Made by a program: the position numbers and the translations under genes. A stretch of 64,000 nt of DNA from Achromobacter xylosoxidans A8. GTDB taxonomy: Bacteria > Pseudomonadota > Gammaproteobacteria > Burkholderiales > Burkholderiaceae_B. This document shows positions 4,446 through 29,036 of this stretch, in pieces. Each line of letters starts with the position of its first letter. Positions within the stretch are counted from its first letter, which is position 1. The notes beneath the pieces were generated by a model, which saw only the letters and a list, made by a program, of their open reading frames with translations, was not told the DNA's origin and ran no database searches. The DNA lies in assembly GCF_000165835.1 (NCBI RefSeq), contig NC_014640.1, forward strand, positions 6,758,001-6,822,000, given 5' to 3'.

Positions 4446-4446
4446 C

Positions 4447-5232: not shown

Positions 5233-5270
5233 ACGGCATTGCCTCGGCTCATAGAAAGAGACTTGCGAAT

Positions 5271-6308: not shown

Positions 6309-6311
6309 GCC

Positions 6312-7418: not shown

Positions 7419-7419
7419 C

Positions 7420-10666: not shown

Positions 10667-10726
10667 ATTCGCGAGCGTGTCTGTTTTTCACTGGCCCGAA
10701 TCCGGCCATTTCTGCATAAAAAGATA

Positions 10727-11758: not shown

Positions 11759-11847
11759 ACATTTGGTAGCCCGGCAGCGGGCGCATCTTGAGTAGAATTC
11801 CGTCTGCGTGCGTTTGGCCGCAAGACACAGGCATGAATGGCGTAATT

Positions 11848-12432
11848 ATGAATTCCAAAGGCATCTTGCTCATCATCGGCAGCGGCGGGCATGGACGCGC
11901 GGTCGCCGAAGCCGCCGAGCTGACAGGCGAATGGACCGGTATTGACTTCGCCGATGACGCGTATCCCGCCCTGCAGCAGTCGGGCGACTGGCACATCGTC
12001 GGCTCGACCGGCCAGCTGCCGGAGCTGGCCCGCAACTATCAGGCGGCGGTCGTGGCCATCGGCAACCAGGCTGTGCGCCAACGCTTGACCGACACGCTGA
12101 CTGATCTCGGCATACCGCTCGCAACCATCGTTCATCCGCGGGCCTGGGTCAGCGCGCTGGCCGAGGTCGGCGCTGGCTGCGCCATCATGGCCGGCGCCGT
12201 GGTCGGCGCCTGTGCGCGTTTGGGGCGTGGCGTCATCGTCAATGCCAACGCCACAGCGGACCACGATGTCGTGCTCGGCGACTTTGCCCATCTTGGCGTT
12301 GGCGTCCAGCTCGCCGGCGGCGTAGTCATTGAAGATCGCGCCTGGCTGCAGGCCGGATCCTGTGCCGGATACCGGGTCCGGGTGCCTGCGGACGCCGTAT
12401 TGCCCCCGGGTTCGCGCCTGATCGCGGATTGA
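11848..12432 (+). CDS. Sugar O/N-acyltransferase, PglD/NeuD-like hexapeptide family
   Basis: Trimeric left-handed beta-helix acyltransferase. The N-terminal sugar-nucleotide binding domain begins 'LLIIGSGGHGRAVAEAAEL'. The hexapeptide coil follows ('GAGCAIMAGAVVGACARLGRG'), with the catalytic histidine region 'NANATADHDVVLGDFAHLGVG'. Start choice is uncertain: ATG 11848 gives the family-like N-terminus (194 aa), while ATG 11833 would add five residues. It lies between the initiating transferase and wbpM, so it probably acetylates or otherwise acylates a sugar precursor of this O unit; the acceptor is unknown. Confidence 0.82.
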   Translation: MNSKGILLIIGSGGHGRAVAEAAELTGEWTGIDFADDAYPALQQSGDWHIVGSTGQLPELARNYQAAVVAIGNQAVRQRLTDTLTDLGIPLATIVHPRAWVSALAEVGAGCAIMAGAVVGACARLGRGVIVNANATADHDVVLGDFAHLGVGVQLAGGVVIEDRAWLQAGSCAGYRVRVPADAVLPPGSRLIAD

Positions 12433-12451
12433 ATCCAGACTAACTATAAAA

Positions 12452-14287
12452 ATGATCATCCCTACCCACTTTCGAACCGCACTGGTGTTTCTGTTTGACC
12501 TGGCGGCAATCCTCATCGCCTGGCTGGGGGCATTCCTCATCCGCTTCAATTTCGAATGGCCGACCGAGTGGGAAGGCCCCATAGCGCGAGCGCTGCTCGT
12601 CTTGCTGCCCGTGCAAATCATCGCCTGCCGCTGGGCGGGCCTGTATCGCGGCATGTGGATCTTCGCCAGCCTGCCAGACCTCAAGCGCGTCCTGAACGTG
12701 GTGCTCGCCTCAACGGTCGCCCTGCTGCTCTTTGCCTTCCTCAATCGTGGCCAGCCCGCATTGCCGCGTTCCATCCTGGTGCTGTATCCCTTGCTGCTGC
12801 TCTTGGTCATGGGCGGTGGACGCGCCGCCTGGCGCATGTGGAAGGAACACAGGCTATACCGCGCGGGCTTCGGCAAGGGCACGCCCGTCGTCGTGGTCGG
12901 CGCGGGCACGGCTGGCGCCATGCTGGTCCGCGAACTGGGTCGTAGTTCCGATTGGCATGTGGTGGCGTTGGTGGACGACGATCCCGCCAAGCGAGGCCTG
13001 GAAATCTCCGGCTGTCGCGTGGCCGGCGGCACCAACAGGCTGCCAGAAATCCTCAATGACTACGGCGCCAAGCACGTTATCCTGGCCATTCCTTCCGCCA
13101 AGGGAACCGCCATCCGCCACGTGTCCGACATCGTGACCCGCGCGGGCGCGTCGCTGTTCACCGTGCCGGGGTTGAGCGAGCTGATGAGCGGCCGTGTCGC
13201 CATCAACATGATGCGTCCGGTAAAGATCGAGGATCTGTTGGGCCGCGAATCCGTGCATATCGACAACGTCAATATCCACGAAATGATTGCCGGCAAGCAG
13301 ATCCTGGTGACCGGCGCGGGCGGCTCGATCGGCAGCGAACTGTGCCGTCAGCTTGCACGCTTCGCGCCGGCCGCCATCATCCTGTACGAGGTGAGCGAGT
13401 TCGCCCTCTACACCATCGAACAATGGTTCACCGACAACCAGCCCTCGGTGCGCGTCATCCCGCTAGCGGGAGACGTCAAGGACGCCACGCGCGTGGATGA
13501 GGTCTTTGCGCGCTACAAGCCGGACATCGTGTTCCATGCGGCGGCGTACAAGCACGTGCCTCTCATGGAGATCGACAATGCCTGGCAAGCTGTGCGCAAT
13601 AACGTGCTCGGCACCCTGAACGTGGCCCAATGCGCCGAACGCTACCAGGCGCAGCGCTTCGTCCTCATCTCTACCGACAAGGCCGTGAACCCCACCAACG
13701 TGATGGGAGCGACGAAGCGCATGGCTGAGATGGTGTGCGAAGTGCTGCATGGACGGAACGGCAAGACGCGGTTCCAGATCGTCCGTTTCGGGAACGTGCT
13801 GGGCAGCACGGGCAGCGTCATTCCCAGGTTCCAATCCCAAATCTCGCGCGGCGGCCCCGTTTCCGTCACCCACCCCGAGATTACGCGTTACTTCATGTCC
13901 ATTCCCGAAGCGGCTCGGCTGGTGTTGCAGGCGGCCGCCATGGGCAACGGCGGAGAAATCTTCGTGCTGGACATGGGCGAACCCGTCAAGATCGCGGATC
14001 TGGCGCGCAACATGATCCGCCTCTCGGGATTCACCGAAGAGGAGATCCACATCGAATTCACGGGGCTGCGCCCGGGCGAGAAACTTTACGAAGAGTTGCT
14101 CGCGGATTGTGAAGAAACACTGGAAACACCGCACCCCAAACTGCGGATCGCGCGTTCCCGTCCCGTTCCCGACGGTTTCCGTGAAGCCGGCATGAGCTGG
14201 ATCGCAGGATCCGAACCCGTGTCAGACGAGGACGTGCGCGCGGAATTGAAATGCTGGATGCCCGAGTACGAGCCCTCCAAGCAATGA
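12452..14287 (+). CDS. wbpM: Membrane nucleotide-sugar 4,6-dehydratase (WbpM/FlaA1-like)
   Basis: Long CapD/WbpM-type SDR that converts UDP-GlcNAc to UDP-4-keto-6-deoxy-GlcNAc. Four N-terminal membrane helices (residues about 10-125) are followed by a first Rossmann-like domain ('VVVVGAGTAGAMLVREL'). The catalytic SDR domain starts at 'VTGAGGSIGSELCRQLARF' (about residue 286). The active-site segment is 'STDKAVNPTNVMGATKRMAE', with Met replacing the SDR Tyr, as is known for WbpM. 611 aa is a normal length. It is the last gene of the plus-strand operon and meets rfbB tail to tail. Confidence 0.95.
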   Translation: MIIPTHFRTALVFLFDLAAILIAWLGAFLIRFNFEWPTEWEGPIARALLVLLPVQIIACRWAGLYRGMWIFASLPDLKRVLNVVLASTVALLLFAFLNRGQPALPRSILVLYPLLLLLVMGGGRAAWRMWKEHRLYRAGFGKGTPVVVVGAGTAGAMLVRELGRSSDWHVVALVDDDPAKRGLEISGCRVAGGTNRLPEILNDYGAKHVILAIPSAKGTAIRHVSDIVTRAGASLFTVPGLSELMSGRVAINMMRPVKIEDLLGRESVHIDNVNIHEMIAGKQILVTGAGGSIGSELCRQLARFAPAAIILYEVSEFALYTIEQWFTDNQPSVRVIPLAGDVKDATRVDEVFARYKPDIVFHAAAYKHVPLMEIDNAWQAVRNNVLGTLNVAQCAERYQAQRFVLISTDKAVNPTNVMGATKRMAEMVCEVLHGRNGKTRFQIVRFGNVLGSTGSVIPRFQSQISRGGPVSVTHPEITRYFMSIPEAARLVLQAAAMGNGGEIFVLDMGEPVKIADLARNMIRLSGFTEEEIHIEFTGLRPGEKLYEELLADCEETLETPHPKLRIARSRPVPDGFREAGMSWIAGSEPVSDEDVRAELKCWMPEYEPSKQ

Positions 14288-17645: not shown

Positions 17646-18536
17646 ATGCGTCAACGTGATTTAACAGATTTGCTGCTTTTGGCGGCGGTCTGGGGCGGGT
17701 CGTTTCTATTCATGCGCCTAGCCGTGCCAGAATTCGGTCCCATCGCGCTGATCGAACTTCGAGTCGGATTGGCGGCATTATCCTTGCTCCCGATCGCCGT
17801 CCTTCGCGGCAAGCTACCCGTAATGGCACGGCACTGGCGATCCATTCTCGTGGTGGGCACGCTGAACGCCGCTGTGCCCTTCCTGCTCTATGCGTACGCT
17901 GCGCAATCCCTGGGCGCGGGGTTCCTCTCTGTAGCCAATGCCGTAACGCCGGTCTGGGGCGCTGTTGTAGGCTGGCTTTGGCTCAAGGACAAACTGCCTA
18001 TAACGCGGGCGATAGGATTGGCCTTAGGGTTTCTAGGTATCGTCGTACTGGTCTGGGATAAGTTGGACTTCAGGGATGGAGGCGCGGGAATGGCCGTGCT
18101 CGCCTCGATCTCCGCACCAATCTTCTATGGAATCGCCGCCAACTGGACCAAGCGCTTCCTGAGCGAGGTAGACGCCCTAGCCAACGCCACGGGCAGCATG
18201 GTGGCCGCAGCTCTTGTTTTGCTGCCCTTCGCCCTTGCCGCGTGGCCAAGCACAACCATTTCCGCAACGGCGTGGCAAGCAACTATCGTCCTCGCTGTCG
18301 TATGTACCGGCGCGGCCTATATCGTGTTTTTCCGGTTAATCGCCAATGTAGGTCCGACGGGGGCCGTTAGCGTCACTTTTCTGGTTCCCATTTTTGGGGT
18401 GCTATGGGGTTCGTGGTTTCTCCACGAACCGGTCACTCCCTCAATTGCAGCTGGCGCCGGCATTATTCTGATAGGCACGGCGCTAGCTCTAGGCTTAATC
18501 AAGCCAAGACGGGCGGACCGAACCAGAGCGCCTTAA
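17646..18536 (+). CDS. EamA/DMT family permease
   Basis: Ten-helix drug/metabolite transporter made of two EamA repeats. The first repeat starts 'LLLAAVWGGSFLFMRLAVPEFG' and ends near 'ITRAIGLALGFLGIVVLVW'; the second spans roughly residues 145-285 and ends 'SIAAGAGIILIGTALALGL'. Substrate cannot be told. It converges with rfbA: the two stop regions overlap by four bases (18533-18536), which leaves no room for a terminator between them. Confidence 0.87.
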   Translation: MRQRDLTDLLLLAAVWGGSFLFMRLAVPEFGPIALIELRVGLAALSLLPIAVLRGKLPVMARHWRSILVVGTLNAAVPFLLYAYAAQSLGAGFLSVANAVTPVWGAVVGWLWLKDKLPITRAIGLALGFLGIVVLVWDKLDFRDGGAGMAVLASISAPIFYGIAANWTKRFLSEVDALANATGSMVAAALVLLPFALAAWPSTTISATAWQATIVLAVVCTGAAYIVFFRLIANVGPTGAVSVTFLVPIFGVLWGSWFLHEPVTPSIAAGAGIILIGTALALGLIKPRRADRTRAP

Positions 18537-19408
18537 TATGTTCGCTTGAATTCCTGAGCGATCGAGGCAAGATAGTCCCTGTATTCACAATTCGGCATAT
18601 CCAAAAGCAAGCGTTCGAACTCATCTATGTTCAGAAAGCCTCGCCGTAGTGAAGCTTCCTCGGGGCACCCTATCTTGACGCCCTGCCGGCGTTCAATCAT
18701 TTCAATATAGGCTGATGCCTCCTGCAAAGCGCTACTTGTACCCGCATCCAGCCAGGCAAAACCTCGACTCAGCTTGTGCACGCGCAACTCGCCGCGCTCG
18801 AGATACAGCCGATTAATATCCGTGATCTCGAGTTCACCTCTTGCCGATGGTCGCAGGCTCCTGGCCATCGGCAACACCTGGTTGTCATAGATATAAATGC
18901 CGGGCACCGCGTAATGGCTACGCGGCTGTTTCGGCTTTTCTTCAATGGACAAGGCATTGCCTTGCCCGTCAAACTCGATCACACCATAGCGTTGCGGATC
19001 CTTCACCGGATAGGCAAAAACAGCAGCACCCGAAACAAATCCTTCGAGTGCCTCCGGAAACGCCCGGGCCCCAGAAAAAATATTGTCCCCAAGCATCAAC
19101 ACGACACTATCGTCACCAATGAACTTTTCCGCGATCAAAAATGCTTGCGCAATACCCTCTGGCTTCGGCTGCGGCAGATACTCGATTGATAGCCCCCATT
19201 GCGCGCCGTCACCCAGCAATTGCTGAAATCTTGGTAGATCGTGAGGCGTGCAGATAATACAAAACTCCCTGACCTTCGCCGCTATCAGCATGGTCAACGG
19301 GTAGTAAATCATCGGCTTGTCATAGACAGCCTGCAATTGCTTGCTTGACACGCGCGTAAGCGGATACAACCGCGAACCATTGCCACCAGCGAGAATAATT
19401 GCTTTCAT
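18533..19408 (-). CDS. rfbA: Glucose-1-phosphate thymidylyltransferase
   Basis: Makes dTDP-glucose from dTTP and glucose-1-phosphate. Nucleotidyltransferase signature 'LAGGNGSRLYPLTRVSSKQL' at residues 6-25 (the family usually has GGSGTRL), then 'VYDKPMIYYPLTMLI', the metal-binding 'MLGDNIF' and 'EEKPKQPRSHYAV'. 291 aa is a normal length. It is the most distal gene of the minus-strand cluster that begins at 27.5 kb, 47 bases after the second SMR-like gene, and is AT-richer than the surrounding core genes. Confidence 0.95.
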   Translation of the reverse strand: MKAIILAGGNGSRLYPLTRVSSKQLQAVYDKPMIYYPLTMLIAAKVREFCIICTPHDLPRFQQLLGDGAQWGLSIEYLPQPKPEGIAQAFLIAEKFIGDDSVVLMLGDNIFSGARAFPEALEGFVSGAAVFAYPVKDPQRYGVIEFDGQGNALSIEEKPKQPRSHYAVPGIYIYDNQVLPMARSLRPSARGELEITDINRLYLERGELRVHKLSRGFAWLDAGTSSALQEASAYIEMIERRQGVKIGCPEEASLRRGFLNIDEFERLLLDMPNCEYRDYLASIAQEFKRTY

Positions 19409-19455
19409 TTTTCAATACTCGTCAAGGTCTCTCCAATATGAGACGGCAACTCAAA

Positions 19456-19782
19456 TTAGAACAGCGTAAGCAGTACGCCAAGCAAAATTACACCCACACC
19501 AAGCCAAAAAGACTTGTTCACTTTCTCGCCGAAGAACACCACACCCCCTAGAGGTACCAAAATATACGCACCTGCGGCGAAGGGTACTAGCTGGGATAGC
19601 TGCAATGTCCGCAACACCCAAACGGCAATCAACATCGACACGAACATCAAGCTTCCGCCGGCGCCGAGCAGCAAGATGCCCAACAACGTGTGCACGCGTT
19701 TGGATGCCCCCTTGACGCACAACTGAGACGCACTGCTGCAGCACACCGCTGCCACGCACAGCATGAACTCGGCCAATGTCAT
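19456..19782 (-). CDS. Small four-helix membrane protein (SMR/EamA-like, ArnF-type partner)
   Basis: 108-residue protein with four predicted membrane helices, e.g. 'FMLCVAAVCCSSASQLCV' and 'LGVGVILLGVLLTLF' at the ends. It resembles half an EamA repeat or an SMR protein, including a 'LVPFAAGAYILVPLGGVVFFGEKV' third helix typical of the fold. ATG 19782 overlaps the stop of the preceding small membrane protein by four bases; the longer frame upstream is antisense to nothing recognisable. Paired half-size proteins next to a polyprenyl-phosphate GT2 recall ArnE/ArnF, which flip undecaprenyl-phosphate aminoarabinose. A lipid-linked sugar flippase subunit is the best guess. Confidence 0.75.
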   Translation of the reverse strand: MTLAEFMLCVAAVCCSSASQLCVKGASKRVHTLLGILLLGAGGSLMFVSMLIAVWVLRTLQLSQLVPFAAGAYILVPLGGVVFFGEKVNKSFWLGVGVILLGVLLTLF

Positions 19783-20183
19783 GATACGGTGCCAGCGTTC
19801 CGAGTCGTGATGAGAATGCCAACACAGATTAAAACGATACCCACGCAATAGGGCCAAGTCAGGGAATCGCCAAAGCAAAAAAAACTGACGATGGGCGTGA
19901 GGACGTAGACGGCAGCGGTCCACGGATACGCCTGCGACACTGGCAAGCGACGCAATGCAGCCAGCCAAGAAAACATGCCGAACAGGCAGGCAACGCCTCC
20001 GGCAATAAACCAGGTGTTGATCCAGCGCTGCAAGCCTTCCCCGGTCCCACCAATAACTGGGCCAGCAGCTAACTTGAATGCCAGCTGAGAGAAGACCGTG
20101 GCGCAGATGGTCAAACTGACAAACAGCCACGGCAAATAGCGACTGCCTTCTGTTTTAGCCACCGTTTCTCCATCAATCACCAT
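19779..20183 (-). CDS. Small four-helix membrane protein (SMR/EamA-like, ArnE-type partner)
   Basis: 134-residue protein with a short hydrophilic N-terminus and four hydrophobic helices, e.g. 'LPWLFVSLTICATVFSQLAF' and 'YCVGIVLICVGILI'. The third helix pattern 'VSQAYPWTAAVYVLTPIVSF' is like that of SMR/EamA proteins. I chose ATG 20183, which has AGAAGAGG just upstream, rather than the frame start at 20219. It begins eight bases after the methyltransferase stop and overlaps the next small membrane gene by ATGA. The pair would form a heteromeric transporter; function is inferred from context. Confidence 0.75.
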   Translation of the reverse strand: MVIDGETVAKTEGSRYLPWLFVSLTICATVFSQLAFKLAAGPVIGGTGEGLQRWINTWFIAGGVACLFGMFSWLAALRRLPVSQAYPWTAAVYVLTPIVSFFCFGDSLTWPYCVGIVLICVGILITTRNAGTVS

Positions 20184-20191
20184 GGCCTCTT

Positions 20192-20935
20192 CTAGCCACG
20201 GGTGGCGACAATCGTGCATTGCCCGCAGCCGATCTCCCTGACCAACGGCAGTCGCTCCACAATTCCCTCAAGTCCCTTGCAGAGCCTTGCCATCCAGTCT
20301 GGGCAAAACATGGGTACCAGGTTTGTGTACTCGACCTTACGCACCGTCATGCCGGCACTGGTAGCCCAGCCTTTTAATGTTGCCCCAGAGAATGAGCGCT
20401 CCTCGTGTTCGATATGGTAACGGGAAAAACGCTCGAGCAATTTCAGGACAGGGTTATACCCATTAGGCTCAAGTATTACCAAGGTTGGAGCAATAGAACT
20501 CACGCAATCAATCGCCTTTTTGGGATCAGGCAGATGGTGCAACACACCTCGCAGCACCACAACATCAAACTGCCTGTCGCCGAGCAGGGGTCCAAGATCG
20601 TAGATGTTTCCGACTTCGAAAGACACTTTGTCAGCGATGTCCATCTCGTGCGAACGCTTGTTGGCGCTCTCAACGGCCATGCTCGCTGGATCGATGCCCA
20701 ATACGAGCTGAGCGCCATGCGCTATAAACTCGACCGAATAGGTGCCATCACCGCAACCCAGGTCCAATACTCGCTTTCCCTTAAAATCATAACTACTGGA
20801 AATCGATTCGCTAATCCGGCGATTCGCATACTTTGCAGACAATTTCTCGGCGGTGTAGGCATACGAACCTGTCCGACGGACATCCTCATCAAAACGCGCT
20901 ACGTTATCTTTTACGGTCTTCGTGGGGACACTCAT
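20192..20935 (-). CDS. Class I SAM-dependent methyltransferase
   Basis: 247-residue Rossmann-fold methyltransferase. SAM-binding motif I 'VLDLGCGDGTYSVEF' is near residue 55, the acidic end of strand 2 is 'LGIDPAS', and motif IV is 'FDVVVLRGVLHHLPDP'. The C-terminal part resembles those of methyltransferases in polysaccharide and lipid loci; the acceptor is not visible. The gene overlaps the second methyltransferase by four bases and clearly belongs to the sugar modification cluster, so a sugar or lipid-linked sugar is the likely acceptor. Confidence 0.82.
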   Translation of the reverse strand: MSVPTKTVKDNVARFDEDVRRTGSYAYTAEKLSAKYANRRISESISSSYDFKGKRVLDLGCGDGTYSVEFIAHGAQLVLGIDPASMAVESANKRSHEMDIADKVSFEVGNIYDLGPLLGDRQFDVVVLRGVLHHLPDPKKAIDCVSSIAPTLVILEPNGYNPVLKLLERFSRYHIEHEERSFSGATLKGWATSAGMTVRKVEYTNLVPMFCPDWMARLCKGLEGIVERLPLVREIGCGQCTIVATRG

Positions 20936-21867
20936 TTGAGCTCCTTTCGTGTTTTTCTTCCGGTCGCAATTATATTTCCCACGCGCAAAGCTACGCGCAG
21001 TTTTGCCAGGCCGGTCCTCTCCAGCACATACGCAACACCCCGCTTTAACGTTCGAGGCAGCGGCATCAGCCTTAGCCAGTATCGCAACGGGTAGGCATTA
21101 CTGATGGCTTTTACTTGTATATCTTCGAACCCGGCGCCTTTCAGAAGAACTGTTATGGACTGCGGATTAAACAACTGGAGATGCTCGACATCGATTATTG
21201 GCGACTTCATGCCAAGCATACGATTAAGAAATCCTGAACGATTATGTACCACTACGGCAACCATGCCGTCCTGTTCAAGCAGATCAAAGGCGGTTCGTGC
21301 AAACTGCCCCGGATCCCGCAAATGCTCCAATGTCATGAACGAACATATCAAGGCAAGCGGCGTATTTTCCAATGCAACCGCAGAAAACATCCCTTCGCGC
21401 AACCATGGGAGAACTTCCGGACTGGCGGCGGCTATTGCCTGTCGTGATGGCTCGATGCCAATAACCTCCCGGAACCCGCTACGCTTCAACCAAGGCAGCA
21501 AAGGACCGCTGCCCGCCCCCACATCGACCGCCGCGCTCCGCGACACTAGGTTTCTCAACGGCGCCTGCAGGGCACGCGCATAGCTCCTGGCTGCGCAGGA
21601 CGCCTCTTCCACAGAATCGTAAGCCGCATCTGCGTAAGCATCTGATAAAAACGAGTTATCAGGCGGCTGCGGTGCAAATACCAGGTCGCAGTCCGAGCAG
21701 CACACCAGTTTCAAACACATGAATTCTGGCTGTTTGCGAGAAGCATATGTAAATTCGCTCACCTTCTGCTGGTCCAACCGCTCATCAGCAAAATGCGAAT
21801 TCCGGAAGCTGCCACATCCGGGGCATGCCCGACCCTTGCTGGCAGTACTCGGCACGGCCGCGTTCAT
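20932..21867 (-). CDS. SAM-dependent methyltransferase with N-terminal zinc-finger-like domain
   Basis: 311 residues. The N-terminal 75 residues carry two cysteine pairs, 'CPGCGSF' and 'CCSDCDLVF', typical of a zinc ribbon placed before the catalytic domain in many sugar methyltransferases. The SAM motif I is 'AVDVGAGSGPLLPWLKR' (near residue 118), followed by 'IGIEPSRQ' and 'SFMTLEHLRDPGQF'. Zinc-bearing members of this broad family include C-methyltransferases of deoxysugar pathways, but sequence alone cannot separate C- from O-methylation. Start ATG 21867 overlaps the previous stop. Confidence 0.8.
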   Translation of the reverse strand: MNAAVPSTASKGRACPGCGSFRNSHFADERLDQQKVSEFTYASRKQPEFMCLKLVCCSDCDLVFAPQPPDNSFLSDAYADAAYDSVEEASCAARSYARALQAPLRNLVSRSAAVDVGAGSGPLLPWLKRSGFREVIGIEPSRQAIAAASPEVLPWLREGMFSAVALENTPLALICSFMTLEHLRDPGQFARTAFDLLEQDGMVAVVVHNRSGFLNRMLGMKSPIIDVEHLQLFNPQSITVLLKGAGFEDIQVKAISNAYPLRYWLRLMPLPRTLKRGVAYVLERTGLAKLRVALRVGNIIATGRKTRKELK

Positions 21868-23846
21868 ACTGACGCTCCTGGGCCGTCCTGCTCAGCGGGT
21901 TTTATCTTGCCGCCCGAAATCAGACTTCTTCGTATGAACGCCGGCCGCGCCTTCGTTTCTTCAAGGATCTTTCCGACGTACTCGCCAAGCAGGCCAACTC
22001 CCAGCATCGTGGTAGACCCGAAAAACATCACGATCAATGATAGAAAAGTTACCCCTTTTGGCACAGACTCAGCATCGAAAATTCGAATACCAATACTAAT
22101 CAAAGCGAGCAGCACGGTACCGACGAACGCAAGCCCTCCGAAGGCAGTCAACAAGTGCAACGGCATCCTGGAAAATGAGAAGATCGCCTTCTTCGCCCAG
22201 CCGATGTTCTTTATCCAATTATTAGTGCTGATGCCGAACATTCGCTCGGGCCGCACGTAGTCAACCCCAACTTGATTGAACCCCACGTAGGCGCGCAATC
22301 CACGCAGGAATGAGTCCCGCTCTTGACAGTTAAGGATCCACCGAACCACCGTGCGATCCATAAGCGAGAAGTCGCCAGCATTCCGCGGAATGGGCACTTC
22401 GCTCAGGGCGCTGAACAACTTATAAAATCCTCTATAGCACGCCTCCAACCAGGGGGGCATATCCCTCTTGATTCGACGTCCATACACAACATCCGCCCCA
22501 GCCCGCCACTCCGCCACAAATGACGCTATCAGTTCCGGCGGATCCTGCAGATCACCGTCAAGCAAAACACACGCTTGCTTACTGGCCAGTTCCATACCAC
22601 TACGAAAGGCCGCCTGCGAACCGAAATTTCTAGAATGAGTGATACCCAAAACATGCGAATCGCGCGCGGATATTTCTCGGATTATCTCTGCTGAGTCATC
22701 CGGTGAATTATCGTTCACGAATATTATCTGGTAATCCACACCCAGATCGGTGAAAACCCGGACCAACCTATCGTGCATGATAGGAATAGCTTGTGCATCC
22801 CTATAACACGCGATGATCGCCGAAACGGAGTATTTCCCTTCGCGAATCTTGCTCTTCTTCGTGAGGGCATCGAACGGCAAACCGGACGATTGCAGATATT
22901 CCTGCCACCAATTACGCGTACGACGCAATCCCTCCCGCAGTGGCACGCTTGGTTCCCAGCCCAGCTTCTGTCTAGCCTTGCTGATGTCGGCAAACCAATT
23001 ATCTACATCCCACGCCCTGCCTGCAGCCACATTAAATCGTGGCTTTGCACTAAGGGAGAAAATCTCGGTGGCTGTGTTCGCCAAAGCCTTCAATGTGGTT
23101 TCGACGCCCGTTCCTATATTGAAAGATTCACCAGCGATCTCCTGCCTCATCGCCAGAGCGGCATTGGCAAATGCCAGCACCACGTCGTCCACATGAACAA
23201 AATCTCGCGAAATCTCGGCTCCTGCGAATACCGGCAACTCTCCGTTCTCAGCGTTGTGGCACAGCGCCGGAATCAAGCGTGACGAATCCTCATAGGGGCC
23301 ATATACGGAATACAGCCGCAAATTGACGACAGGCACGCCCTTCACTTTACCGTAATAGGTGATGGCTTGCGTTGTCGCGGCTTTGCTGACCGCGTAGTCG
23401 CTATTCGGAATTAGTGCGGCGTCTTCTCTGGGACCGGCAGAATTCAATCCGTATTCTGAGGAGCTTCCCGCATGCACGAATGCTGTCAACTCCCTCGCCA
23501 AAACGAGCTCCATCAGTTGAATAAAGCTCAGGTAATTCGTTGCATGGATGCGCGCTTTGTCTTGTTCGAAGGAATAGGCACCGAATGATGAACAGTCGAA
23601 TATGGTCTTGGGATTGACACGATCCAACACCATTCTCATGCTGTCTACGTCTTGTAGATTCATGAATATGAGATTGGTCGTCTGGACACCGCTCAGCCGC
23701 CATGAGTCGCCAGAGAAAGTGGTCCCCACCACATCATTCCGCTGGTGCAGCAATTGACGCAGCAAATTCGCACCGATAAAGCCGCTTGCACCTATAACCA
23801 AAATAGGGCCCGGCACATCGCGTAGTTTCGCCCCGATGTCAATCAC
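21864..23846 (-). CDS. Fusion: NAD-dependent sugar epimerase/reductase + GT2 polyprenyl-phosphate glycosyltransferase
   Basis: 660-residue two-domain protein. Residues about 1-320 form an extended SDR: 'ILVIGASGFIGANLLRQLL' near the start, catalytic 'YAVSKAATTQAITYYGK' (YxxxK), and 'RLYSVYGPYEDSSRLIPAL'. After a linker, residues about 335-660 form a DPM1/ArnC/GtrB-like GT2: 'SAIIACYRDAQAIPIMHDRL', 'FVNDNSPDDSAEII', 'LLDGDLQDPPELI' (metal-binding D-D) and two C-terminal membrane helices with 'GLLGEYVGKILEETKARP'. The start is GTG 23846, which overlaps the transketolase stop (GTGA) and follows GGAAGGA; the frame extends further upstream but only over that gene. The fusion would make an NDP-sugar and load it on undecaprenyl phosphate; this is inference. 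Confidence 0.88.
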   Translation of the reverse strand: MIDIGAKLRDVPGPILVIGASGFIGANLLRQLLHQRNDVVGTTFSGDSWRLSGVQTTNLIFMNLQDVDSMRMVLDRVNPKTIFDCSSFGAYSFEQDKARIHATNYLSFIQLMELVLARELTAFVHAGSSSEYGLNSAGPREDAALIPNSDYAVSKAATTQAITYYGKVKGVPVVNLRLYSVYGPYEDSSRLIPALCHNAENGELPVFAGAEISRDFVHVDDVVLAFANAALAMRQEIAGESFNIGTGVETTLKALANTATEIFSLSAKPRFNVAAGRAWDVDNWFADISKARQKLGWEPSVPLREGLRRTRNWWQEYLQSSGLPFDALTKKSKIREGKYSVSAIIACYRDAQAIPIMHDRLVRVFTDLGVDYQIIFVNDNSPDDSAEIIREISARDSHVLGITHSRNFGSQAAFRSGMELASKQACVLLDGDLQDPPELIASFVAEWRAGADVVYGRRIKRDMPPWLEACYRGFYKLFSALSEVPIPRNAGDFSLMDRTVVRWILNCQERDSFLRGLRAYVGFNQVGVDYVRPERMFGISTNNWIKNIGWAKKAIFSFSRMPLHLLTAFGGLAFVGTVLLALISIGIRIFDAESVPKGVTFLSLIVMFFGSTTMLGVGLLGEYVGKILEETKARPAFIRRSLISGGKIKPAEQDGPGASV

Positions 23847-24736
23847 GTTCCTTCCACCATTGCCAAGATGCCCCCAACGTCCAAACCACATTGCGCCCGA
23901 TGAAAAGCCTGGGATCCAAACTCCCTCACGGCATGCCCGGACGCATGGCGATGGTTGAAACTTGCCGGCACGCACGCTCTAGTAGCCAATGCCAAAGAAA
24001 ACTGCATGCCGAGCCCGCCGGCGGCCACGTGCTCCTCGACGATGTAAACAGCCTGCCCAGAGGCTATGACGGCAAGGATTTCCACGGGCACGTCGCCAAA
24101 CGGCAGCTCGCATACCGCCCACACCGCCGGTCGCCACTCCTTCGGCAATCCCTGCAGCGCCTCCCATGCCACTCCAGCCAATGGACCAAGCGCCAGCAGT
24201 ATGCCGTGGTCGCCAGGGAGCACCTTACGCCAGGCTGCGTACGGTTCCACCGTCGCGCCTTTAGGCCGGGCGTCGTAGCCTAAACGCAGATATGTCGGAC
24301 CATGAATGTGGGAAATGAGCGTCGGCAAATCATCGTCGAAGGCCGGCACCAAAACGCGCACACCCAGTGCGTTCATCGCCGCACAATCTTCCAGAGCGTG
24401 GTGTGTTGGCCCCATGTAACCGTAGGCGTAGCCGCCTCCGTTACCGACCAGGCATACTGATAGCTGCCCAAAGCAGATGTCATTCCGGATCTGTTCATAT
24501 GGGCGTGCGTAGCAAAATGGAGCAATGCTATACACAAATGGTTTGAGTCCTTCGCGCGCCAGCCCCGCCGCCACGCCCACCATGTTTTGTTCGGACACAC
24601 CCATGTTCACAAACCGGGGGCCCAATGACTCCCGCACTTCCTCAAGCGCCATGAAACCCAGATCGCCTGTAAGAAAGAATGCACTCGGATCGTCTTTATA
24701 TTGCGCGATAATTGCCTGAGCGAATGCGACTCTCAT
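23843..24736 (-). CDS. Transketolase-like protein, C-terminal (Pyr/C domain) subunit
   Basis: 297 residues covering the pyrimidine-binding and C-terminal domains of a split transketolase. The cofactor-activating glutamate sits in 'NMGVSEQNMVGVAAGLA' (near residue 50). The Pyr-domain pattern 'GPTHHALEDCAAMNAL' follows, with the histidine pair seen in transketolases. The C-domain begins near 'PLAGVAWEAL'. It overlaps both neighbours by four bases (ATGA with the N-terminal subunit, GTGA with the fusion gene). Split transketolases in polysaccharide clusters are thought to move a two-carbon ketol unit; the substrate here is unknown. Confidence 0.87.
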   Translation of the reverse strand: MRVAFAQAIIAQYKDDPSAFFLTGDLGFMALEEVRESLGPRFVNMGVSEQNMVGVAAGLAREGLKPFVYSIAPFCYARPYEQIRNDICFGQLSVCLVGNGGGYAYGYMGPTHHALEDCAAMNALGVRVLVPAFDDDLPTLISHIHGPTYLRLGYDARPKGATVEPYAAWRKVLPGDHGILLALGPLAGVAWEALQGLPKEWRPAVWAVCELPFGDVPVEILAVIASGQAVYIVEEHVAAGGLGMQFSLALATRACVPASFNHRHASGHAVREFGSQAFHRAQCGLDVGGILAMVEGT

Positions 24737-25557
24737 GAGCTGGCTGCCTCATCATCCAAACGCATGCACGCTGCCGCAAAAAGATCGTCCGAAAGCGGCA
24801 AATAATGGGATTCCATCAAGTTTTCGTTGTGCAGACCCCGGCCCTTTATCGTATTCAGTACGATGATCGCCGGCTTACCTGGATGGCGCGACGCAAGAGT
24901 ACTCTGCAGCGCCTCTGGATCGTGTCCATCGGCACTCACGACGTGAGCACCAAACGACATCAACCGCGGTGCCAAGTCATTGCACGAAATGACATCATGC
25001 GTAGATCCAAACCCCTGCAGACCGTTCTGGTCAATTACGATCGTCAAATTGTCCAGCTTCTGATGGACCGCGAATATCAAGGCTTCCCAGCAGGATCCCT
25101 CCTGCCACTCGCCATCCGAGCAGAGACAATAGATGTGGCGGCCACTCTTCTGATGACGCGCAGCGAGCGCCAATCCGGCAGCCAATGAAGGACCGTGCCC
25201 TAGACTGCCTGTCGAAAACATCAGGCCTGGGACCCCAGTGCCCGAAGGATGGCCCGGCAATTGAGTTCCATCCTGGCAGAACGTGTCGAGTTGCGCATCG
25301 GTCAGCAATCCAATGCTCCAAAGCGCCACATAGAGCGCGCCAGCCGAATGACCCTTGGAGAGTACGAAACGATCTTGCGGACGCATGATCAGAAGATGCA
25401 GGGCAATCATCGCGTCCAGGCAGGACAGATTCCCTCCGATATGGCCCGCACGTGCACGGTGATGCATCGTCAGTAAGCGCCTACGCGCCTTGAAAATGGC
25501 GGCAGGCAGCGATGCTACCTCCGGCAGTCGGCCACCGACGGCTGTCTTGTTAGTCAT
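24733..25557 (-). CDS. Transketolase-like protein, N-terminal (thiamine diphosphate-binding) subunit
   Basis: 274 residues equal to the PP domain of transketolase. 'RAGHIGGNLSCLDAMIAL' and 'FVLSKGHSAGALYVAL' line the substrate channel. The thiamine diphosphate/Mg motif is 'CSDGEWQEGSCWEAL' followed by N in 'VIDQNGLQG' (GDG...N type; here SDG). Together with the next gene it would form one full enzyme. Being so tightly overlapped with nucleotide-sugar and glycosyltransferase genes argues against a central-metabolism role and for modification of a sugar precursor, possibly adding a two-carbon branch to a keto sugar. Confidence 0.87.
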   Translation of the reverse strand: MTNKTAVGGRLPEVASLPAAIFKARRRLLTMHHRARAGHIGGNLSCLDAMIALHLLIMRPQDRFVLSKGHSAGALYVALWSIGLLTDAQLDTFCQDGTQLPGHPSGTGVPGLMFSTGSLGHGPSLAAGLALAARHQKSGRHIYCLCSDGEWQEGSCWEALIFAVHQKLDNLTIVIDQNGLQGFGSTHDVISCNDLAPRLMSFGAHVVSADGHDPEALQSTLASRHPGKPAIIVLNTIKGRGLHNENLMESHYLPLSDDLFAAACMRLDDEAASS

Positions 25558-25672
25558 ACGACAAGGCTCAAGAAGAGAGAGCGCACTAGTTCGTCACTAG
25601 CTCGCAGCGGATTTACCATACCGGATTAAGAACCTTGCGACGGCCCCATGTGTCGGTGCTTTCTCAAGAAAC

Positions 25673-27520
25673 TCAAGGCCTACGCACCGAACCCCTGCTC
25701 TCCCGCGCAGCGTCGCACGCCGCAACCGCCGCCTTGAGCTCTCGGGTGGGTTTGTAGAGAAATTGACTATAACTAGCCGCAACTTCCCCTTTGGGCGACA
25801 TAACCGTACCAATCAAGGCGTAATCTCTTGAAAGGTCAATCCCCAACTCTGGTAATAGACCTAAAGGCATCGGTCGGACTCCCTCGGGTTCTGCCAGCAG
25901 CCATGCCTCAGCCATCTGTTTGCATGGCACAGTGTCCAGCATGACTCTAGCCAGATCCTGGCTGCCGGGATAACCGCCGACCATCCAAGGTTGCCCGATG
26001 GCGTTCCCTCCCAGCGCGTAGACTGTACCCGGAGAGCGCCCAGTGAGGTCTATGACAGGTGTTCCCGCCACGAACCCACTTCCCCTTGCCAAATCACGCA
26101 GGTTGCTGATGTACCGTTCCACTGGCTCGGCTACCTGCAAGGGCCGAGTCCCTGGCGTTAGAAGGAGTCTAGCATGTTGGTCAACCAGAGGTACGCTCTG
26201 GCGATACGGTGCCAAAACAGTCAATCCAAGTAGGCAAACCGCTCCAAACTGAAGAAAGGCGGAGATGGGCAGGGTAGCAATCCAGGCCCCCTCCTCCCGC
26301 CGTCCTGGCACTACCAAGGCAACAGCGCTGAGCCCCCAAAACATGGCATTCGACCCAGCTGCCGGCCAGTAGTTTGCTGCGGTACCGAAAGCGGACAGGT
26401 GTGGCACTAACAGCAATAGGGCCGCCAGGACGACTTGGCGGAAAGACGGCCAAGGAGCGTAGCCAACCAGCGCCCGCACCACTACTGCAACTGCGGCTCC
26501 AGCCGGCACAGCGAGAAAAACGACGTTACGGAAGATGGTCAACGACCCATTTATCAGCGAATAGCCGGCCATGGCCATCATGGCCAGGACACTCGCTACA
26601 ACCACCAAAGTCAAGGAGCCGACAAGGCCGAAAGCGCGAAGCGGCTGAACCAGGAGCACGAGAATCGTTGCCAGGGCCAATATTAGGCAAAGATGCCACT
26701 CATACTCGCTCATGGCGATGATGTCGGCTCTGAACATTGACACGTAGTCATGCTGCGCACCCAGTATTTGATACATCGCAGCGCCATTCTTCAGCCTATC
26801 CGCGAACCGATATATCGAGCCATCCTCCAGCAATGCACTAGCCGTCAACAGCGCCCCGCCAAGCAAGCATGCCAGGCCCAGCAGGCGCCAATTGACTTGC
26901 CTAGTGACGCAAAGACATGTGAACGCCAGGATTGCGAACGCCACCGCGGAAGTGGGCTTCGCCATGAAGATCAGCCAACAACCGATGACAAGACAGAACC
27001 ACCCAAGCGTGCTGGTCCTGCTGGCCGTCCTGTCTGCCAGCACATATCCAATCACGCCCATGGTCAGGCCCTGGGAATTCAGTATGTTGTAGTTCGGCGT
27101 GGGAATCCACGGGCCCACCGTAAGCAGCGCCATGGAGCCCAGCATCAGGGCAACGCACAGCGTGCCACTCAAACTCCAGCCGCCCTTGAACGGCGACGAC
27201 CGCCACATCACCAGCCCGCCCAACAACGCAGCCAATGCAAACGTCACCAGATAGGTAAACCAACGCAACATGGTGACGTCGCCGGACAATAGGACGTACA
27301 GAGGGTGATAGATAAAACCGAACTGCGTGGCTGACGCGTGGTATTGCCATGGATCGCGCATCCACAGCAGGTAGAACGCCTCGTCACTGAGTTCCACCCC
27401 ACGACCGCTCAAGGTCCAGAACCAATAGAGAGCGATCGCGGCGGTACTCGCCCCAAAAAACGCCACTCCTAGCGTCAGTACCGATTTCCAACTGCGCTGG
27501 GCCTCCATCGCGGCAATCAT
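25673..27520 (-). CDS. Polytopic GT-C-type membrane glycosyltransferase
   Basis: 615-residue inner-membrane protein with roughly a dozen hydrophobic helices and a periplasm-facing C-terminal domain of about 150 residues. The first extracytoplasmic loop holds 'GVELSDEAFYLLWMRDP', an acidic D-E pair where GT-C enzymes have their catalytic/metal site. Such enzymes take sugars from polyprenyl-phosphate donors and act in the periplasm, matching the GT2 fusion and small flippase-like pair downstream. ATG 27520 has GAGGGA upstream; the frame opens at a TTG (27544) that I do not favour. It is the first gene of the cluster and is separated by 115 bases from the transketolase genes. Exact family not recognised. 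Confidence 0.75.
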   Translation of the reverse strand: MIAAMEAQRSWKSVLTLGVAFFGASTAAIALYWFWTLSGRGVELSDEAFYLLWMRDPWQYHASATQFGFIYHPLYVLLSGDVTMLRWFTYLVTFALAALLGGLVMWRSSPFKGGWSLSGTLCVALMLGSMALLTVGPWIPTPNYNILNSQGLTMGVIGYVLADRTASRTSTLGWFCLVIGCWLIFMAKPTSAVAFAILAFTCLCVTRQVNWRLLGLACLLGGALLTASALLEDGSIYRFADRLKNGAAMYQILGAQHDYVSMFRADIIAMSEYEWHLCLILALATILVLLVQPLRAFGLVGSLTLVVVASVLAMMAMAGYSLINGSLTIFRNVVFLAVPAGAAVAVVVRALVGYAPWPSFRQVVLAALLLLVPHLSAFGTAANYWPAAGSNAMFWGLSAVALVVPGRREEGAWIATLPISAFLQFGAVCLLGLTVLAPYRQSVPLVDQHARLLLTPGTRPLQVAEPVERYISNLRDLARGSGFVAGTPVIDLTGRSPGTVYALGGNAIGQPWMVGGYPGSQDLARVMLDTVPCKQMAEAWLLAEPEGVRPMPLGLLPELGIDLSRDYALIGTVMSPKGEVAASYSQFLYKPTRELKAAVAACDAARESRGSVRRP

Positions 27521-27824
27521 CAGTCCCTCAAAAAAAATGGGCAACCGCCCAATAGCTGTGCCCCGAAAACCGGCGAAATTCTAGCACCCGTGAAACGATG
27601 GCAACAACATATGCGGAATAACCCCTAAGGACGCTGACATGCGTTAAATGCCTGCTCCAACATCGTCTTGCAAAACTGACTAATGCGTTCGGCGCATGCC
27701 ACACCAGGGATTTATCATCCAGGACTTGGCTACCGCTATCTCCCGGAATCTATAGGTATCGGTTGCCATCGATCTGGAGCAAGCAACGGCAATCTGCGCG
27801 GCGACGGGCAGTGCACACTCCGGA
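27521..27824. other. Intergenic region upstream of the GT-C gene
   Basis: Non-coding gap between the polysaccharide cluster and clsB. The clsB gene ends at its right-hand side limit, so the region must hold the promoter of the minus-strand GT-C gene and the end of the clsB transcript. No convincing hairpin with T-run, repeat or small gene was seen. Confidence 0.4.
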
Positions 27825-29036
27825 TCAGTACTTGTCCGAGGTCCCCGTCAACGCCACCCCGATGCGCAGCAGCGTATAGGAAACCGCGTCGACCCAACGC
27901 CGCAACCATCCGCGGCGCTGGTATTCGATCGGCCGAATGAAGCGCCCGCCCTCCCGGATGGCCGCCTCCAGCCGTTCCTGCAGGTCCCAGGAAAAGGGCT
28001 GGTCGTCCACCACCACGTTGGCTTCGCGCGCCAGCAGCAGGCTGAAGGGGTCCAGGTTGGACGACCCCACCGTCGCCACGTTGTCGATGACTGCCACCTT
28101 GGCGTGCAGGTAGCTCGGCATGTATTCGTAGATCTCGATGCCGTCGCGCAGTAGCTGGTCGTACAGCGAGCGCGTGGCGTGGTACTGCATGCGGTATTCG
28201 ATCTTGCCTTGCAGCAGCAGGCGCACGCGCACGCCACGCGCGGCGGCCTTGGCGAGCGCGCGGCGGAACTGGCGGCCGGGGAAGAAATAGGCGTTGGCAA
28301 TGAGGATGTCGCGGCGCGCATGCGCGATGCCGTACAGGTAGGCGCGTTCGAAGGTCTGGCGGAAGCGCAGGTTGTCGCGCAGCACCAGCGCCGCGCGCAG
28401 GTCGCCACAGGGCGCAACGGAAGCGTGGCGCGGCTTCAGCAGGCGCATGCGGTTCCAGTCGCGCGGATGGCGCCGCAGGCGCGCCCAGTTCAGCCGTACC
28501 CACAGCAGTTCCTGGGCATAGGAGGCTTCGGTGACCAGCGGTCCCTGCACCTGCACCGCGAAATCGAAGCGCGGCCCCGTGATGCCGTCCGTCGGGTCCT
28601 GGTCATCGTAGTCGTCGATGATGTTGATGCCGCCGATGAAGGCGATGCGTCCATCCACCACCGTAACCTTGCGGTGCAAGCGCCGCAGGCGGCTGCGCGA
28701 TGGAATGTAGCGCGCGAACCAGCGCGGCTCGGGGCGGAAAATGCGGCACTGCGCACCAGCGTTGGTCAGGCGCGTGCGCAAGGGATCGACGAACTCGGCG
28801 CTGCCGAAGCCGTCCAGCACCACCCGCACTTTGACCCCGCGCCGCACGGCGGCCTCCAGGCAGTCCAGCACCTGCGAGCCGGTGCGGTCCGGCGTGAAGA
28901 TGTAGGTTTCCAGGTGCACGCTGACCTGGGCGGCGTCGATGGCCGCGCACAGCGCGGGAAAGAAGTCGGCGCCGTTCTGGAGCAACCGAATGTCGTTGCC
29001 CTGCGTCCAGTCCAGCTTGGACTGCTCTGCCCTCAC
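27825..29036 (-). CDS. clsB: Cardiolipin synthase B / phospholipase D family
   Basis: 403-residue phosphatidyltransferase with two HKD motifs: 'LHRKVTVVDGRIAFIGGINI' (first) and 'HAKVAVIDNVATVGSSNLDP' (second), each followed by the G-S/G and N/D residues of the family. No N-terminal membrane helices are visible, which fits ClsB rather than ClsA. GTG 29036 overlaps the stop of the upstream EEP-family gene (GTGA). The same gene pair (ybhP-clsB) is conserved in Escherichia coli. It acts at the inner membrane on phosphatidylglycerol and related lipids. Confidence 0.9.
   Translation of the reverse strand: MRAEQSKLDWTQGNDIRLLQNGADFFPALCAAIDAAQVSVHLETYIFTPDRTGSQVLDCLEAAVRRGVKVRVVLDGFGSAEFVDPLRTRLTNAGAQCRIFRPEPRWFARYIPSRSRLRRLHRKVTVVDGRIAFIGGINIIDDYDDQDPTDGITGPRFDFAVQVQGPLVTEASYAQELLWVRLNWARLRRHPRDWNRMRLLKPRHASVAPCGDLRAALVLRDNLRFRQTFERAYLYGIAHARRDILIANAYFFPGRQFRRALAKAAARGVRVRLLLQGKIEYRMQYHATRSLYDQLLRDGIEIYEYMPSYLHAKVAVIDNVATVGSSNLDPFSLLLAREANVVVDDQPFSWDLQERLEAAIREGGRFIRPIEYQRRGWLRRWVDAVSYTLLRIGVALTGTSDKY

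What the first reader, a model, noticed from the sequence alone, without database searches (positions are those of the whole stretch)
18533..27520. Uncharacterised sugar-modification cassette: split transketolase, epimerase-GT2 fusion, two methyltransferases, small flippase pair and GT-C
Seen: eight minus-strand genes between 27.5 and 19.4 kb plus rfbA, with 4-base stop/start overlaps at five consecutive junctions (24733-36, 23843-46, 21864-67, 20932-35, 19779-82). Known: DPM1/GtrB/ArnC-like GT2 enzymes load sugars on undecaprenyl phosphate, ArnE/F-type pairs flip such lipids, and GT-C enzymes use them in the periplasm. Inference: this is a GtrABC-like surface-glycan modification system whose sugar is first remodelled by a ketol-transferring transketolase and methylated. 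I know no described system with this gene set.
Basis: partly seen in the sequence, partly recalled or inferred. Interest (0 to 1): 0.78.

Follow-up and report, generated by a model that had tools for sequence, protein, structure and literature searches.

The report
Transketolase-based surface-sugar building cassette
A set of bacterial genes that nearly always travel together looks like a machine that adds a two-carbon branch to a sugar and then mounts that sugar on the cell surface; the sugar itself has not been seen, so it is a lead for finding a new one.

Summary
Observation confirmed: eight minus-strand genes at 27520-19456 with all five stated 4-base overlaps. The core (two transketolase halves, then an SDR-GT2 fusion) is a conserved module that I found described nowhere. 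In a scan seeded with the SDR domain alone, both transketolase halves sat directly upstream in 47 of 47 testable loci (49 close hits; 45 of 45 without the two seed loci), in proteobacteria, Mycobacterium and, from MAGs only, Verrucomicrobiota and Myxococcota. The transketolases form one clade and co-vary with the fusion (Mantel r 0.96). Flippases swap (SMR2 in 8 loci, GtrA in 19, none both); the 615-aa protein has a GT-C fold. In the genus (Achromobacter) the cassette fills a slot empty in 27 of 39 other genomes and holding other GtrB-type cassettes in four. GtrABC-like use is well supported. rfbA probably does not belong: 2 of 49 relatives have it nearby, and rfbA/rfbB are the genome's only close copies beside a separate rmlC. 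Best model: the SDR makes an NDP-ketosugar, the transketolase adds a two-carbon ketol branch, GT2 loads it on undecaprenyl phosphate. That chemistry is inferred; one relative lacks the SDR, one lacks the GT2.

The parts
25673..27520 (-). GT-C-like membrane glycosyltransferase (615 aa from ATG 27520; the ORF opens at TTG 27544); predicted to move the lipid-linked sugar on to a periplasmic glycan
24733..25557 (-). Split transketolase, N-terminal (thiamine diphosphate) half, 274 aa
   Evidence: PF00456 5.5e-31; best solved relative is the N component of a split-chain transketolase, 6yak
23843..24736 (-). Split transketolase, C-terminal (pyrimidine-binding) half, 297 aa
   Evidence: PF02779 8.4e-19; E411, R358, H473 equivalents kept
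21864..23846 (-). SDR (epimerase-like, about residues 1-325) fused to a GtrB/ArnC-type GT2 (about 338-660), 660 aa, GTG start
   Evidence: Epimerase 2e-41, Glycos_transf_2 4.4e-22; one frame in 47 of 47 relatives in which both domains were found; SDR serine, YxxxK and GT2 DGDLQDPPE kept
20932..21867 (-). SAM methyltransferase MT1 with an N-terminal cysteine cluster, 311 aa
   Evidence: Methyltransf_23 2.3e-21; homologue in 33 of 49 loci at 150 bits or more; invariant C15, C18, C57, C60 in 27 sequences
20192..20935 (-). SAM methyltransferase MT2, 247 aa
   Evidence: Methyltransf_23 3.7e-19; in 6 of 9 type A and 3 of 30 type B loci with 6 kb or more downstream
19779..20180 (-). Small EamA/SMR membrane protein SMR1 (ArnF-like, weak); start uncertain, ATG at 20219 or GTG at 20180
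   Evidence: EamA 9.1e-9; ArnF model 6.9e-9, below its cut-off
19456..19782 (-). Small EamA/SMR membrane protein SMR2 (ArnE-like, weak), 108 aa
   Evidence: ArnE model 3.3e-6, below its cut-off, on the longer ORF; in 8 of 49 loci, never with GtrA
18533..19408 (-). rfbA (rmlA): neighbour, probably not part of the module
   Evidence: TIGR01207 391 bits, over cut-off; in 2 of 49 relatives; only close copy in the genome
14372..15436 (-). rfbB (rmlB): neighbour, probably not part of the module
   Evidence: TIGR01181 490 bits, over cut-off; only close copy in the genome

Best explanation
This is a horizontally moving glycan-modification cassette of the GtrB/flippase/GT-C kind whose donor sugar is built by a dedicated split transketolase. 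Proposed route: the SDR domain oxidises a common NDP-sugar (probably at C4) to an NDP-ketosugar; the two-subunit transketolase transfers a ketol (hydroxyacetyl, two-carbon) unit on to the ketone, giving a branched NDP-sugar; the SDR may give its hydride back to the new side-chain ketone; the fused GT2 domain loads the sugar on undecaprenyl phosphate; one or two methyltransferases decorate it; the SMR pair (GtrA in relatives) flips it; the GT-C enzyme places it on a periplasmic glycan, probably LPS O-antigen. Shown by computation: the gene set, its linkage, the fusion, catalytic residues, the flippase swap, the GT-C-like fold, the slot. Inferred: acceptor, donor, position and timing of branching and methylation, and the final glycan.
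For: Linkage: TKN-TKC-SDR on one strand in 47 of 47 loci with 2 kb or more upstream, out of 49 close hits; L079 and L106 are cut by contig ends; 45 of 45 without seeds L092 and L098. Reverse test with a transketolase query: seven further genomes at clade-level identity (53-59%), six with the SDR-GT2 next to it. One clade, SH-aLRT 100 (quick tree, no bootstrap), against 27 other split transketolases. Mantel r 0.96 transketolase/SDR-GT2 (43 loci) and 0.93 transketolase/MT1 (31 loci), 0 of 999 permutations as high. Residues for cofactor and ketol kept: H66 in 45 of 46 rows, H100, D155, N185, H261, E411, H473 in 46. L088: transketolase halves plus a stand-alone SDR, no GtrB-type GT2, beside genes that read as ordinary glycosyltransferases, so the product can serve without the GT2, pointing to an NDP-sugar. 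A rough ORF clustering shows no further labelled activating enzyme recurring. Seven of 28 other split-transketolase loci have an RfbB-like SDR over 100 bits directly upstream. GT-C fold; slot.
Against: No product, substrate or mutant is known. G823 (L165) has the transketolase halves with an MT1-like gene, an unfused GT2 and a second methyltransferase, but no SDR in the 16 kb held, so the SDR may not be what makes the ketone. The loss of canonical phosphate-site residues is also common in other split transketolases (G at H461 in 16 of 27, L at D469 in 15 of 27) and so says little about this clade. MT1 is missing (under 150 bits) in 9 of 39 loci with 6 kb or more downstream. The window's GT-C sequence family recurs in only 1 of 49 loci; other loci carry other large membrane proteins, ten of which gave no named GT-C family in Pfam and whose fold was not tested. 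The GT-C model itself is of low confidence. Unlabelled ORF clusters (at most 4 loci each) were not annotated.
Confidence: 0.55

Rival explanations
1. The transketolase makes a precursor in the ordinary sense (a ketose or long-chain sugar phosphate such as an octulose or heptulose phosphate) that is later activated by enzymes encoded elsewhere; the SDR-GT2 then handles the resulting NDP-sugar.
For: Transketolase residues for ketose donors are kept; the transketolase and a GT2 can occur without the SDR (G823).
Against: The genome already has a full-length transketolase (L003); beyond the labelled families no ORF cluster occurs in more than 4 of 49 loci (unlabelled clusters not annotated), so no kinase or nucleotidyltransferase is evident; tight linkage to an NDP-sugar-type SDR favours action on the NDP-sugar.
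Confidence: 0.2
2. The transketolase acts after the GT2, on the lipid-linked sugar, or the SDR acts on the lipid-linked sugar (as DprE1/DprE2 do for decaprenyl-phosphoryl ribose; recalled).
For: The SDR is fused to the lipid-linking GT2 in 47 of 47 loci in which both domains were found.
Against: L088 has the transketolase and SDR with no GtrB-type GT2 in its 21 kb; the SDR's nearest solved relatives are titled as NDP-sugar epimerases and dehydratases.
Confidence: 0.12
3. The branch comes from an alpha-keto acid (YerE-like chemistry by a transketolase-fold enzyme; pyruvate would give an acetyl branch, hydroxypyruvate still a hydroxyacetyl branch).
For: S385, H461 and D469 of the canonical sugar-phosphate site are replaced in the window, which would suit an unphosphorylated donor.
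Against: H100 and H473, which read the donor's C1 hydroxyl in transketolases (recalled), are kept in 46 of 46 rows; the halves match transketolase models best.
Confidence: 0.1
4. An accidental neighbourhood of unrelated sugar genes, with rfbA supplying a dTDP sugar.
For: rfbA follows SMR2 on the same strand after 47 bases.
Against: 47 of 47 linkage and Mantel r 0.96; rfbA in 2 of 49 relatives, on the other strand.
Confidence: 0.03

Closest known systems
GtrABC / ArnC-ArnEF-ArnT type undecaprenyl-phosphate-sugar modification systems
   Same: GtrB/ArnC-like GT2 with two C-terminal membrane helices (hydropathy), small flippase (SMR pair or GtrA), GT-C enzyme with ArnT-like fold
   Different: The GT2 carries an N-terminal SDR and is tied to a split transketolase; one or two methyltransferases. 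My ten paper searches found no GtrABC system described with these
Yersiniose-type branched LPS sugars made by YerE (thiamine-dependent decarboxylase family)
   Same: A thiamine-dependent enzyme in a surface-glycan cluster, here proposed to add a two-carbon branch to an NDP-ketosugar as YerE does (PMC12247030, passages read)
   Different: YerE is a decarboxylase-family enzyme using pyruvate on CDP-3,6-dideoxy-4-ketoglucose; here a split transketolase, and delivery through a lipid carrier
Split-gene transketolases of miharamycin and amipurimycin clusters (Streptomyces)
   Same: Split transketolase proposed to transfer a hydroxyacetyl unit to a keto sugar (PMC12247030 section 2.3, read in full)
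   Different: Those make nucleoside antibiotics; the review reports 13 putative sequences, all from Streptomycetes and none tested in vitro.
Other split transketolases (6yak; AptA/AptB for apulose 4-phosphate, recalled)
   Same: Same two-subunit architecture; 6yak is the nearest solved relative of the N half
   Different: The present clade stands on a long, fully supported branch apart from 27 other split transketolases of the order and is tied to glycan genes
Actinoplanes missouriensis wps-2 cluster
   Same: Split transketolase, methyltransferase and polysaccharide genes (PMC13390465, abstract and passages read)
   Different: Wzx/Wzy pathway with two DegT aminotransferases; no SDR-GT2 fusion in the passages read; deletion of the cluster gave no phenotype under the conditions used

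Membership tests
GtrABC-like lipid-carrier glycan modification system | GtrB/ArnC-type GT2 for undecaprenyl phosphate | tested here: met
   GT2 domain: sll0501 8.3e-55, ArnC 5.5e-36; DGDLQDPPE kept in 48 of 48 rows
GtrABC-like lipid-carrier glycan modification system | Small flippase (GtrA or SMR pair) | tested here: met
   Two EamA/SMR proteins in the window; GtrA in 19 and SMR2 in 8 of 49 relatives, none with both; L092 has GtrA plus an SMR1-like gene
GtrABC-like lipid-carrier glycan modification system | GT-C fold transferase | tested here: met
GtrABC-like lipid-carrier glycan modification system | Transfers the sugar to a surface glycan | not testable with these tools
   No glycan structure or mutant available
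Transketolase | Both domains with cofactor and catalytic residues | tested here: met
   PF00456 and PF02779; H66, H100, D155, N185, H261, E411, H473 equivalents (E. coli numbering recalled) kept in 45-46 of 46 rows
Transketolase | Canonical sugar-phosphate site (R358, S385, H461, D469, R520) | tested here: not met
   R358 kept; S385, H461, D469 replaced by M, G, M in the window; the R520 column (Y in the window) depends on the alignment. Other split transketolases also depart from it
Transketolase | Ketol transfer | not testable with these tools
   Needs an assay
YerE-type branching enzyme | Pyruvate decarboxylase/acetolactate synthase family protein | tested here: not met
   Pfam and NCBIfam place both halves best with transketolases; TPP_enzyme_C only 21.4 bits, under its cut-off
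ArnE/ArnF flippase | NCBIfam equivalog cut-off | tested here: not met
   36 of 99 bits for ArnF and 27 of 92 for ArnE
NDP-sugar 4,6-dehydratase (SDR domain) | Thr-Asp-Glu active-site triad (recalled) | tested here: not met
   The SDR has AGSSSEYG where RfbB has STDEVYG
NDP-sugar 4-epimerase (SDR domain) | NAD motif, serine and YxxxK | tested here: met
   GxxGFxG and SSSE in 50 of 50 rows, Y151 50 of 50, K155 49 of 49 filled rows; activity not testable, GalE model far below cut-off (85 of 262 bits)

The most novel reading that the evidence does not exclude
A cross-phylum, redox-neutral route to a new class of branched sugars: one SDR-GT2 fusion borrows a hydride from an NDP-sugar, a split transketolase adds a ketol unit to the resulting ketone, the SDR returns the hydride to the side chain, and the same protein loads the branched sugar on a lipid carrier for export, in Gram-negative bacteria and mycobacteria alike.
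Probability: 0.3. Interest if true: 0.8.

Novelty: new variant of a known kind. Interest (0 to 1): 0.64.

Why it matters
A core that stays together in carriers of four phyla while its flippase, methyltransferases and GT-C partner change probably makes one particular kind of sugar, and none of the papers I found describes this gene set. If the model holds, it would be, as far as I found, the first transketolase shown to branch a cell-surface sugar; it would give a genetic handle (the SDR-GT2 fusion) for finding such sugars in sequence data; and it would supply a ketone-accepting transketolase, a class that the review PMC12247030 says is proposed but untested.

Tried and rejected
rfbA and a dTDP-4-keto-6-deoxy sugar as the acceptor: rejected as the general case, though the window's own strain could still use it. 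Phosphate-site loss as proof of an NDP-sugar acceptor: rejected, because other split transketolases show it too. The RfbB-like SDR beside other split transketolases as a true dehydratase: not claimed; six of the seven were scanned and score below the model cut-off, and the two read in full have TPE and YxxxR at the active site. Phages: 14 records hold a relative of the N half, the ten listed at 36-40% identity, below this clade's level. Plasmids: one record, a Methylobacterium aquaticum megaplasmid, with the same TKN-TKC-SDR-GT2 order. Rfam: no match in the window at gathering score.

Papers. Ten searches; four of them returned no paper, which may reflect the all-terms rule, so absence from print is claimed only for these searches in this open-access library. 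PMC12247030: section 2.3 in full and passages. PMC13390465: abstract, outline, passages. PMC10338323, PMC9834719, PMC11766843, PMC9040725: passages only. All others: search listing only.

Rows dropped. Searches used 46 of 48 clade pairs (L098 and L103 fell out, a half under 200 aa) and 27 other pairs (L002 and 26 of the loci L028-L056). One search used 39 of the 41 other genus genomes with the flank gene (43 genomes searched); G033 and G034 were not fetched. H26 was not counted (wrong offset in my script); it is visible in the printed rows only. Loci L109 and L110 (23-25% identity) were left out of the 49. Type A/B labels were given by me from the tree.
Full report
What is there. The window lies in a 7.36 Mb genome. 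Its genus is inferred as Achromobacter: the same-genus genome G032 has the contig of Achromobacter sp. UMC46 (L092; equal contig length). Eight minus-strand genes run from 27520 to 19456: a 615-aa membrane protein, two transketolase halves, an SDR-GT2 fusion, two methyltransferases and two small EamA/SMR proteins, followed by rfbA. The five 4-base overlaps read ATGA, GTGA, ATGA, ATGA, ATGA. The region is 55.3% G+C against 65.5% to its right.

Is it a unit? Among 36 other same-genus genomes in a 61-genome search, only G032 carries a full-length homologue of the fusion (53%); its neighbours are again the two transketolase halves and MT1. A third case, G105 from another family, has TKN-TKC-SDR-GT2-MT1 and a large membrane protein, its N half broken by a frame change. 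With the SDR domain of these three as seeds, a scan of genome contigs (84,980 species) gave 51 loci, 49 of them close. Two of the 49 (L092, L098) are the seed genomes themselves. In 47 of the 47 loci with at least 2 kb upstream, both transketolase halves precede the SDR on the same strand; L079 and L106 are cut by contig ends. In 47 of 47 loci where both domains were found, SDR and GT2 are one frame (43 as listed ORFs; four by direct translation). L107 is cut by its contig end; L088 has a stand-alone SDR. Record titles include Zoogloea, Duganella, Curvibacter, Xanthomonas, Pseudomonas protegens, Cupriavidus, Variovorax, Bordetella, Azorhizobium, Methylobacterium and Mycobacterium asiaticum, plus Verrucomicrobia and Myxococcales MAGs; the last two phyla rest on MAGs alone.

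Reverse test. A transketolase query in 369 class-level and 398 phylum-level genomes found seven further genomes at 53-59% identity. Six have the SDR-GT2 next to it; G823 has an MT1-like gene, an unfused GT2 and a second methyltransferase instead, with no SDR in the 16 kb held. These seven were not placed in the tree and may overlap with the species. The 399-genome order-level search found the seed G105 and otherwise matches at 36-43%. In a quick tree the 46 clade rows form one group with SH-aLRT 100 against 27 other split transketolases (the program flags several long branches among the others). Distances of transketolase and SDR-GT2 correlate at r 0.96 over 43 loci, and transketolase and MT1 at 0.93 over 31, with no permutation of 999 as high, although carriers span phyla. 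So the core moves as a block.

Two architectures. Type A, the window's kind, mostly has MT1, MT2 and the SMR pair; type B often has GtrA and another methyltransferase. Of 39 loci with 6 kb or more downstream, SMR2 is in 7 of 9 type A and 0 of 30 type B; GtrA in 0 of 9 and 18 of 30; MT1 in 8 of 9 and 22 of 30. Over all 49, SMR2 is in 8 and GtrA in 19, none with both. Exceptions: L069, type A by its transketolase, has GtrA, and L092 has GtrA plus an SMR1-like gene. A swap of small flippases around one core is what a lipid-carrier route predicts.

The slot. In the genus the cassette sits between a gene that reads as phospholipase-D family (27825) and one that reads as EamA (to 18536); both names are from reading, not from a family search. 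In 27 of 39 other genomes examined the two are within 200 bases; 8 hold rfbB-rfbA; 4 hold cassettes with a GtrB-like GT2. One of these (L117) has RfbA and a WecE-type transaminase over their model cut-offs and a GT2 like PgfS/ArnC; its WbqC, GtrA and methyltransferase genes are named from resemblance. G036 has a comparable set near WbpM, with DegT, WbqC and GtrA confirmed by Pfam. The window's cassette is thus one alternative load of a glycan-modification slot. In G032 that slot is empty and its cassette lies further along the same region.

rfbA. The window's rfbA and rfbB are the only close copies in the genome (next best 32% and 31%); rmlC (PF00908) and, by resemblance, rmlD lie together about 24 kb left of the window. 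The simplest reading is rhamnose supply.

Chemistry. Cofactor and ketol-binding residues are kept in 45-46 of 46 rows; S385, H461 and D469 are replaced, but many other split transketolases do the same, so this does not single out the acceptor (E. coli numbering and roles are recalled). The SDR keeps a nucleotide motif, serine and YxxxK but not RfbB's triad. L088 shows the transketolase-SDR trio without a GtrB-type GT2, next to genes that read as ordinary glycosyltransferases, which points to a nucleotide sugar as the product. Seven of 28 other split-transketolase loci have an RfbB-like SDR (over 100 bits) directly upstream (L030 and L054 have weaker ones); five of the six placed in the tree group together, L046 falls elsewhere. 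From this I infer: the SDR makes an NDP-ketosugar, the transketolase adds a two-carbon ketol branch. G823 without an SDR speaks against the SDR being indispensable. A rough ORF clustering found, beyond the labelled families, no cluster in more than 4 of 49 loci; those were not annotated.

Known work. A 2025 review reports split-gene transketolases proposed to branch keto sugars in Streptomyces nucleosides, none tested in vitro (PMC12247030, section 2.3), and YerE as the known branching enzyme of an LPS sugar. A 2026 paper has a split transketolase in an Actinoplanes polysaccharide cluster whose deletion gave no phenotype (PMC13390465, passages). None of the passages read describes the SDR-GT2 module.

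Verdict. Observation confirmed; GtrABC-like reading well supported; transketolase branching plausible and testable but inferred; rfbA excluded from the conserved module.

Noticed in passing
L034, L036, L038, L039, L045, L046, L048: Other split transketolases of the order have an RfbB-like SDR directly upstream (below the dehydratase cut-off in the six scanned; TPE and YxxxR in the two read); possibly another branched-sugar pathway.
   Followed up: partly
L165 8352-12984: G823 has clade-type transketolase halves with an MT1-like gene, an unfused GtrB-like GT2 and another methyltransferase, but no SDR in the 16 kb held.
   Followed up: partly
L088 8281-16704: Transketolase halves and a stand-alone SDR ending where the GT2 would start, followed by genes that read as glycosyltransferases and an asparagine synthetase; the GT2 seems to have been lost.
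   Followed up: partly
window 17646-29036: The slot between the EamA-like and phospholipase-D-like genes is a glycan-cassette hot spot in the genus: empty in 27, rfbB-rfbA in 8 and other GtrB-type cassettes in 4 of 39 genomes.
   Followed up: yes
window 2689-14287: Plus-strand O-antigen genes: WbuX, HisH and HisF2-type acetamidino genes, FnlA-like, WbcJ reductase, a WcaI-like glycosyltransferase and a WbpM-like dehydratase, suggesting an acetamidino-sugar O-antigen.
   Followed up: no
L098 8.3-9.0 kb and L059 5988-6744 (G105): The N half of the transketolase is broken by a frame change in this complete genome; whether a real pseudogene or a sequence error is unknown.
   Followed up: no
L089, L097, L102: One Mycobacterium asiaticum isolate and two Mycobacterium MAGs carry the type B core, so the module crosses from Gram-negative bacteria to Actinomycetota.
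   Followed up: no
L002 (G000:C1:5184719-5185408): The window's genome has a second, distant split transketolase (37% to the window's N half) outside the clade; its context was not examined.
   Followed up: no
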